From Bifidobacterium primatium (GTDB lineage Bacteria > Actinomycetota > Actinomycetes > Actinomycetales > Bifidobacteriaceae), in assembly GCF_002802875.1 (NCBI RefSeq), contig NZ_PEBI01000002.1:323353-387352 (forward strand): 64,000 bases of DNA, written 5' to 3'. The first letter of the stretch is position 1, and every line of letters starts with the position of its first letter. The notes under the pieces are model-generated. The model ran no database searches and was not told where the DNA came from. It saw only the letters and a list, made by a program, of their open reading frames with translations. This document shows, piece after piece, positions 30,116-36,367 of this stretch. Made by a program: the position numbers and the translations under genes.

Positions 30116-30164
30116 ACTCCCGCCCGAGTTCTCCGGTTTCGACGGCCCGCAATGTCTTTTCGTC

Positions 30165-30206
30165 AAGGCCCCTTCCGCATGCGGCAGCCATGCGGAAGGG
30201 GCTTTC
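30165..30206 (+). terminator. Intrinsic terminator after ribF
   Basis: GCCCCTTCCGCATG (30168-30181) is complementary to CATGCGGAAGGGGC (30189-30202), with a 7-base loop and a short T-run. It insulates the following signalling locus from ribF transcription. Confidence 0.8.
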
Positions 30207-30223
30207 GTATTGCGTATGCAAAC

Positions 30224-30249
30224 GGGGCATCAACTATAGTTGATGCCCC
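30224..30249. promoter_or_regulatory. Perfect 26-bp palindrome before the response regulator gene
   Basis: Bases 30224-30249 read the same on both strands, with core CATCAACTATAGTTGATG. The centre (30236.5) is 29.5 bases before the first base of a perfect TATAAT. With a start near 30278 the site is centred at about -41.5, the class II activator position, and covers the -35 region. A closely related 20-bp palindrome lies at 32209-32228. Likely the binding site of the LuxR-type regulator encoded just downstream (inference). Confidence 0.75.
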
Positions 30250-30265
30250 ACGGCAAGCTGCGGAT

Positions 30266-30271
30266 TATAAT
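30266..30271 (+). promoter_or_regulatory. -10 element of the response regulator operon
   Basis: TATAAT stands 14 bases before the ATG at 30286, leaving a leader of only about 8 bases and no Shine-Dalgarno sequence. No separate -35 is evident, since the -35 region is inside the palindrome, consistent with activator dependence. Confidence 0.65.
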
Positions 30272-30285
30272 CCCCTTTCCCTCGT

Positions 30286-31002
30286 ATGAACGAATCCCGC
30301 CGGAGTAGGTTGGATAGCGTGAATGATGACAAGGGATGCCGGACGATTCATGTGGCGATCGTGGACAATGACCGATGCGCGCTCGCCATGTTGGACCAGC
30401 TGATCTGCGGAACATACGATGACCTCGCCGAAGACGGGATTCGCATCGTGACGGACTGGTGCGAGACCAGCGGCCGCAGGGCGATTATGCGGTGCAATCG
30501 AGTCGAGACCGTTGCGGACGTGTTGCTGCTCGACATGAGCATGGAGGACATCTCCGGCGTTCGCGTCTGCGAAGCGGTACGTTCCCGGCACGAAGTCATG
30601 GCGATTCTCGGCATCACGTCGTATTCTCCGACGAAATACGCAAAGCGGTTGGCGGAAGCCGGGGCTCAGGGTCTGGTTCCCAAGCTTGACCGCATGGAAA
30701 TCGTGCGGGCGATCGTCACCGTGGCCGATGGCGGTCTCTTCGAGCGATACGGCCGTTTCACGACCGTGGATGAATCGTATCGAAGACTCCGCAAGACGAC
30801 GCCGGCTAGGGAGGAGCTCTTCTCCGAACGGGAGTTCGACGTCATGGACCTCTGCTCATACGGCCTGACCTCCGACGAGATCGCGGAAAAGCTCGGTATC
30901 TCCCCTTCCACGGTCAAAACGCATGTGGTCAAGGCGATGAAGAAGCTCGGCGCCCGCAACCGTGCCGAGGCCGTGGGCATGTGGGTGACGGCAAGGGAAT
31001 GA
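30286..31002 (+). CDS. LuxR/NarL-family response regulator
   Basis: 238 residues. The receiver domain (about 20-145) has IVDND, phospho-acceptor Asp83 in LLLDMSM, Thr111 in GITSYS and Lys133 in VPKLD. The C-terminal HTH (LFSEREFDVMDLCSYGLTSDEIAEKLGISPSTVKTHVVKAMKKLGARNRAEAVGMWV) is of LuxR type. The ATG at 30286 has no ribosome site; a GTG at 30319 (MNDDKGCRTIHVAIVDND) gives a more typical N-terminus. The stop overlaps the kinase start (ATGA). A palindrome overlaps its promoter, suggesting autoregulation. The stimulus is not identifiable. Confidence 0.9.
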   Translation: MNESRRSRLDSVNDDKGCRTIHVAIVDNDRCALAMLDQLICGTYDDLAEDGIRIVTDWCETSGRRAIMRCNRVETVADVLLLDMSMEDISGVRVCEAVRSRHEVMAILGITSYSPTKYAKRLAEAGAQGLVPKLDRMEIVRAIVTVADGGLFERYGRFTTVDESYRRLRKTTPAREELFSEREFDVMDLCSYGLTSDEIAEKLGISPSTVKTHVVKAMKKLGARNRAEAVGMWVTARE

Positions 31003-32135
31003 CAATGAATGATTCCAAAGAATGGCTGCAGGACCGAGCCTCGAATGTTGATTTTGTGACGTTATTGATAGCCGTTGTGGTTGTAGTGTCCCTACTGGAA
31101 TGGCAGATGAATCCTCCGCATTGCATTATTGCGGTGGTATGTTCTCTCGCGCACATATTCGCCGTGTTGTTGATACCTTTCAGGCCAATCGAAGGCGGTG
31201 AAATCGTTGTTTTCATCTATTGCTGCTTTTCATTGCTGCCTTTGAATGAAGGAGTGAGTCAGTATTGGGGCGTCTGGGTTGCTTTGGGTTTTCTTGGTTA
31301 TCATCGTTTTTGGAAAAACGGCCTGGTGATGATGATGGTTGCCGTGTCGGCGAGAATGCTGCAATATTGCATTTTCCATGCTGCGGATGACTCATTGATT
31401 ATCGCAATGATGATGTCCTGTTCGTTCATCTTCGCGTGGTGCATAGGAGGGATGTTCCGGAGGGAAGTCGTCATCAATCGTGAATTGCAGGCCCTGCATC
31501 AGGAACGGCTGCAATACCAACGTGAGAAAAGAGTCGCAGCGGAAATCCATGATGCCGTATCGGGGCAGCTTTCCTACGCCATTCTTCTATCCCAGCGTAC
31601 GGATAAGACCCCGCAGACGATAATCTCCGGTATGCAGGATGCATCGGTAAAGGCGATGAATTCGCTGTATCAGATCATCGACTATCTAAATGATGAGTCG
31701 GAACGGGATCTCAGCGAATCCGATTCCCTGAAAGAATCACATCAACGGCCGTCCGACAGGTTGGGAACGATGCTTCGGGAAGAGGAGCATCGACTGGCGT
31801 CGATCGGTTTCGCCGGCAGAATTGCCGTGCAGGGAGATCCTGCCCGTATTTCGACGGAAGGTGAGGAATGCCTGTCGGGTTTGCTGAGGGAGTTGTTTGC
31901 AAACATCATGCGGCACGGCGAGCCGAGCGAACCGTATTATCTCAGCATCGTTTTCTCCTTGCACGAGATAACCGTGGTGCAGTCGAACACTATTCGAAAA
32001 GAACAATCCGCGATTCCTGCTTCTCGGGGACACGGACTTGTCTCGTTAAAGCAGCGCATTGCGCATAGGGGAGGCGTGGTTCGTCAGGTCCTGGAGGACG
32101 GGAGCTGGACGTTATACGCCTCCATTCCCCTGTGA
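30999..32135 (+). CDS. Membrane sensor histidine kinase (HisKA_3/NarX-DesK type)
   Basis: 378 residues from the ATG at 30999, which overlaps the regulator stop. The N-terminal ~155 residues form about five or six membrane helices with no extracytoplasmic domain of note. The dimerisation domain carries the phospho-accepting His184 in RVAAEIHDAVSGQLSYAILL. The ATPase domain has an N-box (RELFANIMRHG, Asn302) and a G-box (SRGHGLVSLKQRI). It should phosphorylate the adjacent LuxR-type regulator. The lack of an outer sensor domain points to sensing within or at the membrane, as for DesK or LiaS types (inference). Confidence 0.88.
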   Translation: MTMNDSKEWLQDRASNVDFVTLLIAVVVVVSLLEWQMNPPHCIIAVVCSLAHIFAVLLIPFRPIEGGEIVVFIYCCFSLLPLNEGVSQYWGVWVALGFLGYHRFWKNGLVMMMVAVSARMLQYCIFHAADDSLIIAMMMSCSFIFAWCIGGMFRREVVINRELQALHQERLQYQREKRVAAEIHDAVSGQLSYAILLSQRTDKTPQTIISGMQDASVKAMNSLYQIIDYLNDESERDLSESDSLKESHQRPSDRLGTMLREEEHRLASIGFAGRIAVQGDPARISTEGEECLSGLLRELFANIMRHGEPSEPYYLSIVFSLHEITVVQSNTIRKEQSAIPASRGHGLVSLKQRIAHRGGVVRQVLEDGSWTLYASIPL

Positions 32136-32157
32136 GGAAATATGCGGAATATGTTGC

Positions 32158-32228
32158 TGCCGAAAGGCATCAATCATCTGCCAAAAGGTGCCGGCCATCT
32201 GCCGAAAGGCATCAACCATAGTTGATGC
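32158..32228. promoter_or_regulatory. Three 21-bp direct repeats ending in a palindrome like that at 30224
   Basis: Units begin TGCCGAAAGGCATCAATCATC (32158; here given only as its start TGCCGAAAGG) at 32158, 32179 and 32200, each exactly 21 bases, the middle one being degenerate. The third runs into a 20-bp palindrome (32209-32228, GCATCAACCATAGTTGATGC) that differs from a perfect dyad at one base pair and matches the core of the palindrome at 30224-30249. The spacing of two helical turns suits cooperative binding on one face. It lies before the lipoprotein gene. Confidence 0.7.
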
Positions 32229-32373
32229 AATATTTTGCCTGTTCCGGCAAGTCCGATAGCGTGGGCGACGTAGGCCATACTTCAACGACGAGGAGGAAAC
32301 GATACGAGGCGGTGATGCTAAATTAGGCGATAGCGGTATTGCAATGTCGGAATACGTGGATGGGGATGCCGGG

Positions 32374-33063
32374 ATGGAGAAGTCTCGTTACGGTGCAATC
32401 AAGGTTGTTTCTTCGATGATGGTGTGTCTGTCGTTGATGCTTATCGGTGGATGCTCATCGGGAGGGGAATCGACAGGTGCCGCGAAGTCCGGCGGCAGTG
32501 CATCGGCCTCTGCGACGACGAATCCATCACCTTCGGAAAGTTCCCCATCCGTTTCTTCTCCGACCGAAACCGAAAAGCCGGTCACTGATTCGTTGGGTAC
32601 ATATTATGACGTGATCAAGGACCGGACTCTGGCGGAATGTGTGGCCAGTGAAATGTGGGCAAAACCCACGGACCAGCTTTCCAAGAAGAAAGCGGAAAGC
32701 GTGACCGATCTCACGGTTATTGGCGTGCTCAATGAATACAACATGCCCGACACACTTCCGTCATGCGGCATTGCGTTGAAGCACTTGACGAATCTTTCGG
32801 GATTGGAGGTATTCACGAATCTGAAGATCATATGTCTTGATCATCTGACGAACCTCAGCGATATCTCGGCGCTTCGTGGGATGAGCAAGCTGGCAATCGT
32901 CAGTCTGAAAGATACCGCTGTCCGTGACCTGACCCCGCTCGGCGCAGTGAAACATGTACGTACCCGAGATGATCGTGGAGTCTCGGTCTATGTGACCCAC
33001 GCCATGTACGATTCGATGATCGTGCCCAAGAACAGCGACATCATCCTATGGAAACAAGGATGA
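32374..33063 (+). CDS. Leucine-rich-repeat lipoprotein
   Basis: 229 residues from the ATG at 32374. MEKSRYGAIKVVSSMMVCLSLMLIGGC is a lipoprotein signal with lipobox LIGGC, so Cys27 should be lipidated and the protein membrane-anchored outside. A Ser/Pro/Thr-rich linker of ~50 residues follows. The C-terminal part has internalin-like leucine-rich repeats (LKHLTNLSGLEVFTNLKIICLDHLTNLSDISALRGMSKLAIVSL). An ATG 10 codons earlier lacks a ribosome site, whereas a perfect AGGAGG at 32291 faces an in-frame ATA at 32302, so the true start is uncertain. Regulation by the upstream two-component system is inferred from the shared palindrome. Ligand unknown. Confidence 0.75.
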   Translation: MEKSRYGAIKVVSSMMVCLSLMLIGGCSSGGESTGAAKSGGSASASATTNPSPSESSPSVSSPTETEKPVTDSLGTYYDVIKDRTLAECVASEMWAKPTDQLSKKKAESVTDLTVIGVLNEYNMPDTLPSCGIALKHLTNLSGLEVFTNLKIICLDHLTNLSDISALRGMSKLAIVSLKDTAVRDLTPLGAVKHVRTRDDRGVSVYVTHAMYDSMIVPKNSDIILWKQG

Positions 33064-33153: not shown

Positions 33154-34749
33154 GTGAGAGAGGACGGAGATATGCTGCATGGGGGAATGCTCAGGCCGGT
33201 GACGTCGGTATTGTCGGCCGTACTTATGGTGATTGGCATGCTTGCGGCCACCGTGATAGCGCCTGTGGCGCCGTCCCATGCAGCATCGTCCGTTGTTATG
33301 GCCGCCGGAGACGGCGAATCGGCATCCGGTGGTGCCTCGTCGGCAAATGATGGCGGGCCGACGTTCGAGGGAACGGTGTCGCCGACGTTTTCGTTGTCCG
33401 ACTCCGGAGGAACGTATGGCTTCATCAGGGTCATGTCGTCTCCGGACGGCAAGACCGCGTACGTGCGGCAGGGAGGCCACGTATATGTCGTCGATGTGGT
33501 CTCCAGAACGGTGCGGTCGAAGATAACGTTCATGTCCAATGGGACGGGCGACGTGTCGTTGTCCGCCGACGGCAGCCGGCTGTATGTGTTGGATGCCGGC
33601 ACGGTGAAGGTGTTCGATACGGCGTCCATGAAGCAGATCGGCGGTTTTGGTGGTCATCTGACCATGGTCGTCGTCAGTGAGGATGGAAGAACCGCCTATG
33701 CGCCGGTGATCACCAAAGGCGGCACCGCCGAAACCGGCCTGGCGCAATACGATCTGTACTCATACGATATCGCCAGCGGACACAGCAAGCGGCTGTTCTC
33801 CCTGACGAACGCCAGCGTCAGCTATCTGCCCGCGTTCTCCTCGAAAACCGGGCTGATCTACGCGTACTTCTATCGTGAACGCAACCGGGATTCGGCGTTC
33901 GGCACCATCAACATGAACACGGGCGACATACGTGCATTGAAAACCGCTTCGGAAGGAGTTGGCTCCGATATGAGGATGAAGGTGTCCGATGACGGTGGTG
34001 CGCTCGCCTACATCTCCGGTGCGAAGCAGGTCGTCGTCATCGACGTGCGGACGGGGGAGCGGCGGGCGCTTGACGTGCCGTTCACGCCACGGACCCTTAT
34101 GCTGTCGCGGACCGGCAAACGACTGGTGGTAAGCAATAACGCCATCGGTCAAAGGCAGACCGCCGGTAAGGCCGAGGCTTTTGACCTCTCTCGGGGTGTT
34201 GCGAAAGCCGAGGCGGAGACGGATGCCGTGGCCACGAACATCATACCGATGATGATTGAGGACGACCGCAACGTCATATATGGAGCCATGGGCAATCGAG
34301 AATCGGACGACGGCAAGGTTTATCAACTGAATCTCGACACCGGGCGACAGCAAAGCGGCGTGTCCATCTACGATTCGAAGGACTCGGCGTATGACAATCA
34401 GCCTTCCGTCGCTGATCCGATAGGACCGCGCAAGCTATTGATCACCCAGTCCGGAGACGGCGGACGGATGCTGGTTCTCGGCATGCACACGCAGAACGAG
34501 AATTCGTTGTTCCTCTCGATGCTGAGGCTGCCGAAGACTGTGGACGACGGTGTCGGTTCGTCTCAGGTGGAGGCCAGGGATGACGGGAATAACGGTAGTG
34601 GATTGTCCGCCGCCGTGATTTCGGGAATCTGTGCGGGTGCGGCGGTGGTCGTTGCTGTCGTCGGTGCGAGTGTGATGCTCGTCATCAGGCGTCGGCGGGG
34701 GCCGGGGCGGACGGGAGCTCACATTCAAGGTCCCCGCCGGCGGCATTGA
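33154..34749 (+). CDS. Membrane-anchored beta-propeller-like surface protein
   Basis: 531 residues with a GTG start 8 bases after GGGAGGG. Residues ~15-44 form a signal peptide ending SHAA. The main domain shows repeated propeller-like blades of the YVTN type (SPDGKTAYVRQGGHVYVVDVVSRTV, SADGSRLYVLDAGTVKVFDTASM, SEDGRTAYAPV, SDDGGALAYISGAKQVVVIDVRTGE, SRTGKRLVVSNN). A Gly/Asn-rich linker, a membrane helix (AAVISGICAGAAVVVAVVGASVMLVI) and a basic RRRRGPGR stop-transfer tail follow. The chain would be held on the outer face by its C-terminus. It follows the LRR lipoprotein in the same direction and may belong to the same regulon. Ligand or activity unknown. Confidence 0.8.
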   Translation: MREDGDMLHGGMLRPVTSVLSAVLMVIGMLAATVIAPVAPSHAASSVVMAAGDGESASGGASSANDGGPTFEGTVSPTFSLSDSGGTYGFIRVMSSPDGKTAYVRQGGHVYVVDVVSRTVRSKITFMSNGTGDVSLSADGSRLYVLDAGTVKVFDTASMKQIGGFGGHLTMVVVSEDGRTAYAPVITKGGTAETGLAQYDLYSYDIASGHSKRLFSLTNASVSYLPAFSSKTGLIYAYFYRERNRDSAFGTINMNTGDIRALKTASEGVGSDMRMKVSDDGGALAYISGAKQVVVIDVRTGERRALDVPFTPRTLMLSRTGKRLVVSNNAIGQRQTAGKAEAFDLSRGVAKAEAETDAVATNIIPMMIEDDRNVIYGAMGNRESDDGKVYQLNLDTGRQQSGVSIYDSKDSAYDNQPSVADPIGPRKLLITQSGDGGRMLVLGMHTQNENSLFLSMLRLPKTVDDGVGSSQVEARDDGNNGSGLSAAVISGICAGAAVVVAVVGASVMLVIRRRRGPGRTGAHIQGPRRRH

Positions 34750-34761
34750 GTCCGCAGTTCC

Positions 34762-35100
34762 TTAAATCAGGGAGGCCATGACGTATTCGATGACGTGCTT
34801 CATCTCGTCGTCGGGAACATATCCGATGATCTCGGCGTTGCGGGCCTTGAGATCCAATGCCTTGAGCTGTTCGGTCTGCACGAATCCCTCGATGCTATGC
34901 GATGTCGATATGGGATGCACCGGCAGATGCAGCGGGTACCCGTTGTCGCGCGACGTGATGGGGCAGGTCATCGTCAGATTGCACAGCTGGTTGTATCGGT
35001 CATTGCTTACGACCAGCAGGTACCGTCGTTTGCGCTGCTCGTGACCGGCCGAAGGGTCGAGGTCGGCGGCGACGACATCGCCTCGTCTGAATCCGTTCAC
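34762..35100 (-). CDS. MazF/PemK-type toxin (endoribonuclease family)
   Basis: 112 residues from a GTG at 35100 on the minus strand, with AGGAGG 4 bases upstream. The fold signature is clear: FRRGDVVAADLDPSAGHEQRKRRYLLVVSNDRYN, then LTMTCPITSR, then GFVQTEQLKALDLKARNAEIIGYVPDDEM. MazF toxins cleave mRNA at short motifs. The start overlaps the stop of the antitoxin gene by four bases (GTGA), which is typical of MazEF operons. It is convergent with the surface-protein gene. Confidence 0.92.
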   Translation of the reverse strand: MNGFRRGDVVAADLDPSAGHEQRKRRYLLVVSNDRYNQLCNLTMTCPITSRDNGYPLHLPVHPISTSHSIEGFVQTEQLKALDLKARNAEIIGYVPDDEMKHVIEYVMASLI

Positions 35101-35369
35101 ATCGCCTCCTGTCCGACAGGGGCGGCGAAGCCGTCTTCCTCGGGCTGCCATGTTCCCCTCCAATCGGCGAACAGATCGCGCAGATCGGGGACGTTGTAGT
35201 CGCTGACGCGTGTGGTCTTGGGGGAGACCGGCCTGATGACGATGTTGCCGTCCTCCACGTCCAACGTCACGTAGCTGCCGGCCGAGATGCCGGTCTGTTC
35301 GCGAATCTCCTTGGGGATGCGAATGGCCTCGCTGTTGCCCCAGGTCGCCACAACCGCCGTGCTGGTCAT
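35097..35369 (-). CDS. MazE/AbrB-type antitoxin
   Basis: 90 residues. The N-terminal swapped-hairpin DNA-binding domain (VVATWGNSEAIRIPKEIREQTGISAGSYVTLDVEDGNIVIRPV) is the SpoVT-AbrB/MazE fold. The C-terminal ~40 residues (DYNVPDLRDLFADWRGTWQPEEDGF), acidic and extended, should wrap the toxin. It is the first gene of the pair, with GGAGG before its ATG, and should repress its own promoter together with the toxin. Confidence 0.92.
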   Translation of the reverse strand: MTSTAVVATWGNSEAIRIPKEIREQTGISAGSYVTLDVEDGNIVIRPVSPKTTRVSDYNVPDLRDLFADWRGTWQPEEDGFAAPVGQEAM

Positions 35370-35521
35370 GATGCCTCCCTGATTGAGTTGCCAATGAGCG
35401 TTTCGTCAATGTAAGTACGGATATACATAAGGATATACCAATGTCGTTGCGTTGGGAATCCGTCGTGAAAAGCGGGGATAATGGGAGTGGAATGCGTGGT
35501 TTTGATGGCGAGGAGGCCGAG

Positions 35522-36367
35522 ATGGGTGGAAATGTGAACGGAAACGGACGTGGAAACGTGGGGAGGGGTGCGAACGTCATCGTGGTGACGGGTGCGTCGA
35601 GCGGCATGGGACGCGAGTTCGTGCAGCAGATCGCCTACTGGGCGGCGGTCGGGCGCATCGGGGCCGACGAGATATGGGTGATCGCGCGACGGGAGAAGCG
35701 ATTGCGTGAGCTTGCGGGCGGCGCGCCGGTGAAGGTGCGGCCGTTGGCGCTCGACCTCGCCGACGCCGACGACCTCGAAGCGTATCGCCAGCTACTCGCC
35801 GAGGAGCGGCCGAACATCGTGATGCTCGCCAACTGCGCCGGCTTCGGCAAAATGGACCACTTCGAAAACGTGCCGCTTTCCGACGAGCTCGCCATGGTGG
35901 ACCTCAACATCAAGGCGCCTCTCGCCATGGTCTCGCACAGTCTGCCGTACATGCGCGCCGGTGCAAGAATCATGAACCTGTGCTCCATCAGCGGATTCCT
36001 GCCGTGCCCGTACATCAACGTGTATGCGGCAACGAAGGCGTTCATGGTCAGCTGGTCGCGGGCGCTCGGCCGCGAGCTCGCCCACCGCGGCATCAAGGTG
36101 ACGGCCGCATGCCCGTACTGGGTGCGCACCGAATTCTTCGACCGGGCGCAGCCGAAGACGGGGGAGCGGCGGCCGTTCCACAACTTCGTCGGCATCATGG
36201 ACGCGCGCGCTGTGGTGCGGAACATCATCGAGGATACGTTCCGTGGACGTGCGCTGTCGCTGCCGGGCTGGCCGGCCAAGACGATTTTCGCGGCGACGAG
36301 GCTGCTGCCGGTGCGGACTCTCATGTGGTCGCAGCTGCGTCTACAGGGGCTGGACGGACGGCCATAG
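35522..36367 (+). CDS. Short-chain dehydrogenase/reductase
   Basis: 281 residues from the ATG at 35522, chosen for the AGGAGG five bases upstream; longer starts at 35441 and 35492 add only a low-complexity lead. The Rossmann cofactor motif is TGASSGMG, the structural NAG motif appears as NCAG, and the catalytic Ser and Tyr-Lys lie in CSISGFLPCPYINVYAATK. The substrate is unknown. The C-terminal part (FAATRLLPVRTLMWSQLRLQGL) is amphipathic, as in SDRs acting near membranes on fatty or lipid substrates, which is only suggestive. A small hairpin follows. Confidence 0.88.
   Translation: MGGNVNGNGRGNVGRGANVIVVTGASSGMGREFVQQIAYWAAVGRIGADEIWVIARREKRLRELAGGAPVKVRPLALDLADADDLEAYRQLLAEERPNIVMLANCAGFGKMDHFENVPLSDELAMVDLNIKAPLAMVSHSLPYMRAGARIMNLCSISGFLPCPYINVYAATKAFMVSWSRALGRELAHRGIKVTAACPYWVRTEFFDRAQPKTGERRPFHNFVGIMDARAVVRNIIEDTFRGRALSLPGWPAKTIFAATRLLPVRTLMWSQLRLQGLDGRP

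What the first reader, a model, noticed from the sequence alone, without database searches (positions are those of the whole stretch)
30224..32228. Shared palindrome marks a putative regulon of a LuxR-type two-component system
A perfect 26-bp palindrome (core CATCAACTATAGTTGATG) lies over the -35 region of the regulator operon, centred near -41.5 from the predicted start. A 20-bp near-match is found 2 kb away, before the LRR lipoprotein gene, and within this window I saw no third good match. The layout implies that the regulator activates itself and the surface-protein genes. This gives a testable operator for an undescribed signalling system.
Basis: partly seen in the sequence, partly recalled or inferred. 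Interest (0 to 1): 0.72.

Follow-up and report, generated by a model that had tools for sequence, protein, structure and literature searches.

The report
Two-site switch of a gut-bacterium regulator
A Bifidobacterium gene switch appears to recognise one palindromic DNA address that occurs only twice in its genome, before its own genes and before a neighbouring surface-protein gene; this is an ordinary kind of control circuit, made interesting because the address is kept while the genes behind it differ between species.

Summary
A perfect 26-bp palindrome (30224-30249) precedes a LuxR-type response-regulator/kinase pair; a one-mismatch copy of its 18-bp core (32210-32227) precedes an LRR-like lipoprotein gene. 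The 2.7-Mb genome has no third match at 3 mismatches or fewer. The window is Bifidobacterium, near B. saimiriisciurei and B. catulorum. Of 9 genus genomes searched, the two-site pattern occurs only in the 3 with an orthologous regulator; the palindrome is the longest invariant block of the upstream region and its distance to TATAAT is fixed. A diverged regulator system in a fourth genome of the genus has an exact TCAAC-N4-GTTGA dyad before its secreted-protein gene and one-mismatch copies before the regulator; one regulator in another genus also has an exact copy. In B. catulorum the second site sits before a different gene (a secreted Cys-containing protein). I conclude it is the regulator's operator, giving autoregulation plus one adjacent target unit, probably by activation. 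Not supported: control of the neighbouring propeller gene. Binding, phosphorylation and direction of control are inferred. It is a new member of a known kind; the changing target and a possible secreted-protein/lipoprotein pair are the interesting parts.

The parts
30224..30249 (.). operator 1: perfect 26-bp palindrome before the regulator operon
   Evidence: holds the longest block invariant in three species (24 bp)
30266..30271 (+). TATAAT, predicted -10 of the regulator operon, 20 nt after the 18-bp core in all three species
   Evidence: no matching -35
30319..31002 (+). LuxR/NarL-type response regulator (REC + GerE), GTG start
   Evidence: Pfam PF00072 and PF00196 above cut-off; orthologues 95% and 86%
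31005..32135 (+). membrane sensor histidine kinase, assigned by motifs (H182, D183, N300, G342/G344) and linkage
   Evidence: no Pfam family above cut-off; weak NCBIfam MctS E 9e-5, far below its cut-off
32209..32228 (.). operator 2: near-palindrome before the lipoprotein gene; also scores as a terminator-like hairpin with an AATATTTT tail
32235..32240 (+). TTGCCT, possible -35 of the lipoprotein gene
   Evidence: sequence, picked by eye; not recognised by the promoter scan
32255..32262 (+). GATAGCGT, proposed -10 region, exactly 27 nt after the core in three species (GATAACGT in B. saimiriisciurei) although the DNA between has diverged
32374..33063 (+). LRR-like lipoprotein (lipobox LIGGC by eye), first gene after operator 2 in this genome
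30165..30205 (+). hairpin after ribF, likely its terminator, separating ribF from the regulator operon
   Evidence: RNA fold -33.1 kcal/mol for 30160-30215, z -4.75; not called by the terminator scan

Best explanation
The palindrome is the binding site of the response regulator encoded just after it. The kinase phosphorylates the regulator in response to an unknown signal; a regulator dimer binds TCAAC-N4-GTTGA (with GGCA...TGCC flanks at site 1) upstream of two promoters: its own (centre about -41.5, positive autoregulation) and that of the adjacent secreted/surface-protein unit (centre about -48 to -50). In this genome the second unit begins with the lipoprotein gene; in B. catulorum it begins with a secreted Cys-containing protein followed by the lipoprotein gene. 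Shown: specificity, conservation, position, co-occurrence with the regulator. Inferred: binding, phosphorylation, activation rather than repression, signal. The confidence is for the link between dyad and regulator, whatever the sign; within it I judge activation about three times likelier than repression.
For: Only 2 matches in the genome, both here. Of 9 genus genomes searched, the pattern (2 mismatches or fewer, 2 places each) is in the 3 that hold a regulator orthologue at 86% or more and in none of the other 6. The invariant 24-bp block is followed by a next-longest of 9 bp; own versus B. catulorum 24/26 identical inside, 113/187 outside. Site 2 keeps 15/18 while flanks keep 18/60 and 9/27. 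Distance to the proposed -10 is fixed at 20 and 27 nt in 3 of 3 species. Exact TCAACNNNNGTTGA in 8 genomes: 12 places, 9 at regulator loci (one of the 9, in G007, inside a coding region), reversed control 0. A regulator only 32% identical (G007) has two 1-mismatch dyads before it and a perfect GTCAAC-N4-GTTGAC before its secreted-protein gene; G024 has an exact one before its regulator. Of 58 distinct regulator upstream regions 8 carry the dyad with at most 1 mismatch; 29 permuted-arm patterns average 0.66, maximum 5; other spacers give 0-1 (recount). REC residues D16, D72, T100, K122 are invariant.
Against: No binding or expression data. The three close species share ancestry; the 8 regions are 6 lineages (3 are the orthologues), not far above the best permuted control (5). 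In L016, L033 and L133 the dyad has one mismatch and its place relative to the start codon is doubtful. In G007 the looser pattern (2 mismatches) is not enriched genome-wide (54 against 44 for the control); only the top of the list is (3 of the 5 places with at most 1 mismatch). One high-scoring regulator locus each of G001, G006, G008 and G088 has no dyad within about 10 kb. Operator-to-promoter spacing differs by 7-9 bp between the two sites and is 32-36 bp in G007 and 48 bp in G024, with boxes picked by eye. Relatives of the secreted/lipoprotein pair in G138 and G150 have no two-component genes within the 13 kb read. Site 2 scores as a terminator-like hairpin.
Confidence: 0.8

Rival explanations
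1. The dyad is the regulator's operator but acts as a repressor site: bound regulator blocks RNA polymerase at its own promoter and at the second promoter. (This reading lies within the 0.8 given to the dyad-regulator link.)
For: Site 1 overlaps the -35 region, where a bound dimer could also exclude polymerase; conservation does not tell the sign.
Against: Site 1 promoter has a perfect -10 and no -35, as expected of an activator-dependent promoter; site 2 lies upstream of the possible -35, not over or below the -10.
Confidence: 0.2
2. The dyads are RNA hairpins (terminators or processing sites of ribF and of the kinase gene), not DNA operators.
For: Site 1 folds at -23.4 kcal/mol, z -5.5; site 2 at -12.1, z -2.5. 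Site 2 is followed by AATATTTT and is called terminator-like.
Against: Site 1 has no T tract and lies after a stronger ribF hairpin. The T tract of site 2 is absent in B. catulorum. The letters TCAAC/GTTGA, not just pairing, are kept in non-orthologous systems, and two G007 copies carry one-sided changes that break pairing. Terminator-like calls were no more frequent than in shuffles (2 against 2.4).
Confidence: 0.07
3. The dyad is bound by some other regulator encoded elsewhere.
For: No binding data; HTH families other than LuxR also bind dyads (recalled).
Against: Pattern and regulator orthologue co-occur in 3 genomes and are absent together in 6 of the 9 genus genomes, and the same core accompanies some diverged members of the same regulator family.
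Confidence: 0.1

Closest known systems
SerRK of Bifidobacterium breve (two-component control of the serpin gene, autoregulatory)
   Same: A bifidobacterial two-component system controlling an adjacent exported protein with an autoregulatory loop (passages of the review PMC7822027; passages of PMC8012564)
   Different: Target is a serpin; sequence and operator could not be compared because the original paper (PMC3457475) is not held
NarL/VraR/DevR-type response regulators
   Same: REC + GerE architecture; best solved relatives VraR (E 4e-23), then DevR and NarL
   Different: The named NCBIfam equivalogs shown all score far below their cut-offs (MadR 75 of 300 bits); their operators were not compared here
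Paralogous bifidobacterial LuxR-type systems (e.g. L019, L021, L023, L028)
   Same: Also have a dyad upstream of the regulator
   Different: Dyad is of another sequence, GTTGTmATCC-N3-GGATGACAAC

Membership tests
LuxR/NarL-type response regulator | receiver domain above curated cut-off | tested here: met
   PF00072 45.6 bits against 30.2
LuxR/NarL-type response regulator | GerE HTH domain above curated cut-off | tested here: met
   PF00196 63.4 bits against 23.5
LuxR/NarL-type response regulator | conserved acidic residue, phospho-acceptor D, T/S and K | tested here: met
   D16, D72, T100, K122 invariant in 4 of 4 rows of A2; roles recalled
Two-component histidine kinase | kinase domains above curated Pfam cut-off | tested here: not met
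   no Pfam hit above cut-off
Two-component histidine kinase | H-box, N-box and G-box residues | tested here: met
   H182 D183, N300, G342 and G344 invariant in 4 of 4 rows of A4; motif names recalled
Class II activator promoter | operator centred near -41.5 on a promoter with poor -35 | tested here: inconclusive
   geometry fits a predicted start; start not mapped
Class II activator promoter | regulator raises transcription | not testable with these tools
   needs expression data
SerRK system | sequence orthology and shared operator | not tested
   original paper not held
Leucine-rich repeat protein | LRR domain above curated cut-off | tested here: not met
   LRR_4 14.9 bits against 27; internalin H model E 9e-5 but 21 bits against 1050

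The most novel reading that the evidence does not exclude
A mosaic bifidobacterial competition module: a two-component switch of narrow scope (two operators per genome) drives a cassette of a secreted Cys-containing protein and its partner lipoprotein, with an Rv2525c-like wall hydrolase nearby in some genomes. The lipoprotein would be the immunity partner, kept as an orphan where the secreted gene has been lost (as in this window), while the operator stays in place and the cargo is exchanged.
Probability: 0.25. Interest if true: 0.65.

Novelty: new member of a known kind. Interest (0 to 1): 0.42.

Why it matters
It gives a ready-made, testable operator for one group of bifidobacterial two-component systems, and it ties that switch to a small set of exported proteins that differs between species and may act between bacteria or at the cell surface.

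Tried and rejected
Secreted protein of B. catulorum (L008 8130-8720): scanning it and 3 relatives against Pfam gave one match in one member, DUF6112 at E 0.11; no PHROG, no NCBIfam family up to E 1, no defence family; PDB profile hits, best E 0.005, look like chance; the single-sequence AlphaFold model had mean pLDDT 32 and was not searched. A recalled likeness of its C-terminus to lactococcin 972 was not supported by Pfam and is dropped. Relatives of it: 6 of 189 family genomes, one with an in-frame stop; 0 of 394 genomes drawn from the class, a search that had no positive control; 0 in viral contigs; 0 in phage records.

The 16-mer ATCAACTATAGTTGAT in viral contigs: 53 stretches, not examined; treated as background because the collection is large.

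ATCAAC-N4-GTTGAT in 189 family genomes: 26 places in 20 genomes, reversed control 3 places. The 20 loci returned, one per genome, were inspected within 3 kb; apart from the three orthologous loci only G024 sits before a regulator-kinase pair. The extra places of G017 and G066 were not inspected. The site of G007 at L102 3479 (exact TCAAC-N4-GTTGA) lies inside a coding region and is not counted as an operator.

Regulator-region counts: a strict finder kept only 20 regions (7 with the dyad). One search took 60 loci (the best 30 of each of two searches, not all matches listed there) and dropped 11 whose first 20 residues repeated an earlier row, leaving 49 (8 with the dyad), in which two genes were still counted twice (L016/L144, L034/L132). 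The recount keeps all genes once: 58, 8 with the dyad. The palindrome listing read reverse-strand loci in the wrong orientation and was redone.

Full report
What was checked. The palindrome GGGGCATCAACTATAGTTGATGCCCC is at 30224-30249 exactly as described, and a copy of its 18-bp core with one change is at 32210-32227. In the whole 2.7-Mb genome in which the window lies there is no third place with up to three mismatches, and the reduced core TCAACNNNNGTTGA occurs exactly twice, both here, with no match for the reversed control. Among perfect spacerless palindromes in the window it is alone above 9-bp arms; simulated windows gave 0.125 with 10-bp arms on average.

Where it is. The upstream gene is ribF (PF06574, PF01687), followed by a strong hairpin at about 30165-30205. 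The palindrome comes next, then TATAAT at 30266, then a response regulator (PF00072 and PF00196 above cut-off) and a membrane kinase that no Pfam model recognises but which keeps the H, N and G box residues. The second dyad lies between the kinase gene and a lipoprotein gene with weak LRR similarity. The two named relatives found are Bifidobacterium saimiriisciurei (regulator 95% identical) and B. catulorum (86%).

Conservation. The 9 genomes returned for the genus were searched. Three have a regulator at 86% or more and the same three have two dyads each, about 2 kb apart; the other six have none at two mismatches or fewer. Over the ribF-regulator gap the palindrome holds the longest run identical in all three species, 24 bp, the next being 9; own and B. 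catulorum agree at 24 of 26 positions inside and 113 of 187 outside. The core-to-TATAAT distance is 20 nt in 3 of 3 although the letters between change. At the second site, where the flanks of own and B. catulorum are no longer alignable (18 of 60 and 9 of 27 positions equal), the dyad keeps 15 of 18 and GATAGCGT follows after exactly 27 nt in both, GATAACGT in B. saimiriisciurei. The in-frame ATG at 30286 is ACG in B. saimiriisciurei, so the regulator most likely begins at GTG 30319.

The cargo changes, the site stays. In B. catulorum the second dyad precedes a 196-aa protein with, by eye, a signal-peptide-like start and several Cys, and the lipoprotein gene follows it. No relative of that protein was found in the window's genome or in G005, the B. 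saimiriisciurei genome. The kinase has diverged more than the regulator in B. catulorum (57% against 86% identity), mostly in its second half. Downstream, a beta-propeller gene stands in the window's genome but not at the B. saimiriisciurei locus.

Beyond orthologues. In G007, of the same genus, a regulator with 32% identity and its kinase are followed by a relative of the secreted protein. A perfect GTCAAC-N4-GTTGAC dyad stands before the secreted gene and two one-mismatch dyads stand between the regulator and a divergent gene with Rv2525c-like and peptidoglycan-binding domains. At two mismatches or fewer the G007 genome has 54 matches (control 44), so the loose pattern is near background; of the 5 with at most one mismatch 3 are at this locus. 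In G024, another genus, the only exact TCAACNNNNGTTGA of the genome lies before a regulator-kinase pair. Over the eight genomes there are 12 exact places: G000 2, G005 2, G002 3 (2 at the locus), G007 3 (2 at the locus, one of them coding), G024 1, G008 1 (elsewhere), G001 and G006 none. In 58 distinct regulator upstream regions, 8 have the dyad at one mismatch or fewer, against an average of 0.66 for 29 patterns with permuted arms (maximum 5), and other spacers give 0-1. The 8 are 6 lineages, so this enrichment is moderate. One regulator locus each of G001, G006, G008 and G088 shows no such dyad. So the core seems to belong to part, not all, of this regulator family; other members have a different dyad.

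How it probably works. The regulator, once phosphorylated, binds as a dimer to the dyad. At site 1 the geometry (centre at -41.5 of the predicted start, perfect -10, no -35) is that of an activator-dependent promoter; at site 2 the dyad lies just upstream of a possible -35 TTGCCT. In my judgement this favours activation about 3 to 1 over repression. The signal is unknown. The two sites differ in distance to the -10 by 7-9 bp, which is unexplained.

Rivals. A terminator or RNA hairpin is unlikely for site 1 and possible as a second use of site 2 in this genome. Another binder is not excluded but is disfavoured by co-occurrence.

What is new. The kind of circuit is known: an autoregulated two-component system with an adjacent exported target, as in SerRK of B. 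breve (review passages; the original paper was not available). Word searches of the held open papers, of which I saw listings and, for two papers, passages, listed no paper that by its title is about this system; they could not search for the operator's letters and cover only part of the literature, so absence from print is not claimed. The more novel reading rests on gene neighbourhood: the secreted protein and the lipoprotein are adjacent in G002, G138 and G150 (3 of 6 genomes with the secreted protein; G138 and G150 look nearly identical and G083 holds an interrupted copy), the lipoprotein family also occurs without it (own, G005, G157, G158), and Rv2525c-like proteins are near it in G002, G007 and G048. 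This fits a secreted effector with a partner lipoprotein but is not tested.

Changes on re-check. The regulator-region count was redone and the hydrolase domains were tested; the place count was corrected to 26.

Noticed in passing
window 30313, 32255, 33148: TAGCGTG occurs four times in 64 kb, both strands, three of them at the regulator start, the lipoprotein promoter and the propeller-gene promoter; the last two share, by eye, TTGCCY-16-TAGCGTG. Could be a shared -10 type.
   Followed up: partly
window 31601-32800 against L007: The kinase's second half and the lipoprotein gene are nearly identical to B. saimiriisciurei (296-297 of 300 in three of four 300-base blocks, 282 of 296 in the fourth) while the kinase's first half and the regulator are about 91-94%: looks like recent exchange.
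   Followed up: partly
L008 6678-7865 against window 31005-32135: The kinase keeps its membrane half but has a diverged catalytic half in B. catulorum.
   Followed up: no
L008 9573-11759, L102 1296-3518, L103 5601-8141: Large proteins with PF08924 (Rv2525c-like) and peptidoglycan-binding domains near the secreted gene; the L008 copy strongly matches phrog_15213 (559.9 bits).
   Followed up: partly
window 33172-34749: Beta-propeller-like exported protein with, by eye, a C-terminal membrane segment; absent from the B. saimiriisciurei locus.
   Followed up: partly
window 34762-35607, minus strand: MazE/MazF-like toxin-antitoxin pair (PF04014, PF02452) next to the variable locus.
   Followed up: no
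L019, L021, L023, L028 upstream of the regulator: Another regulator group with a different dyad, GTTGTmATCC-N3-GGATGACAAC, a candidate operator of its own.
   Followed up: no
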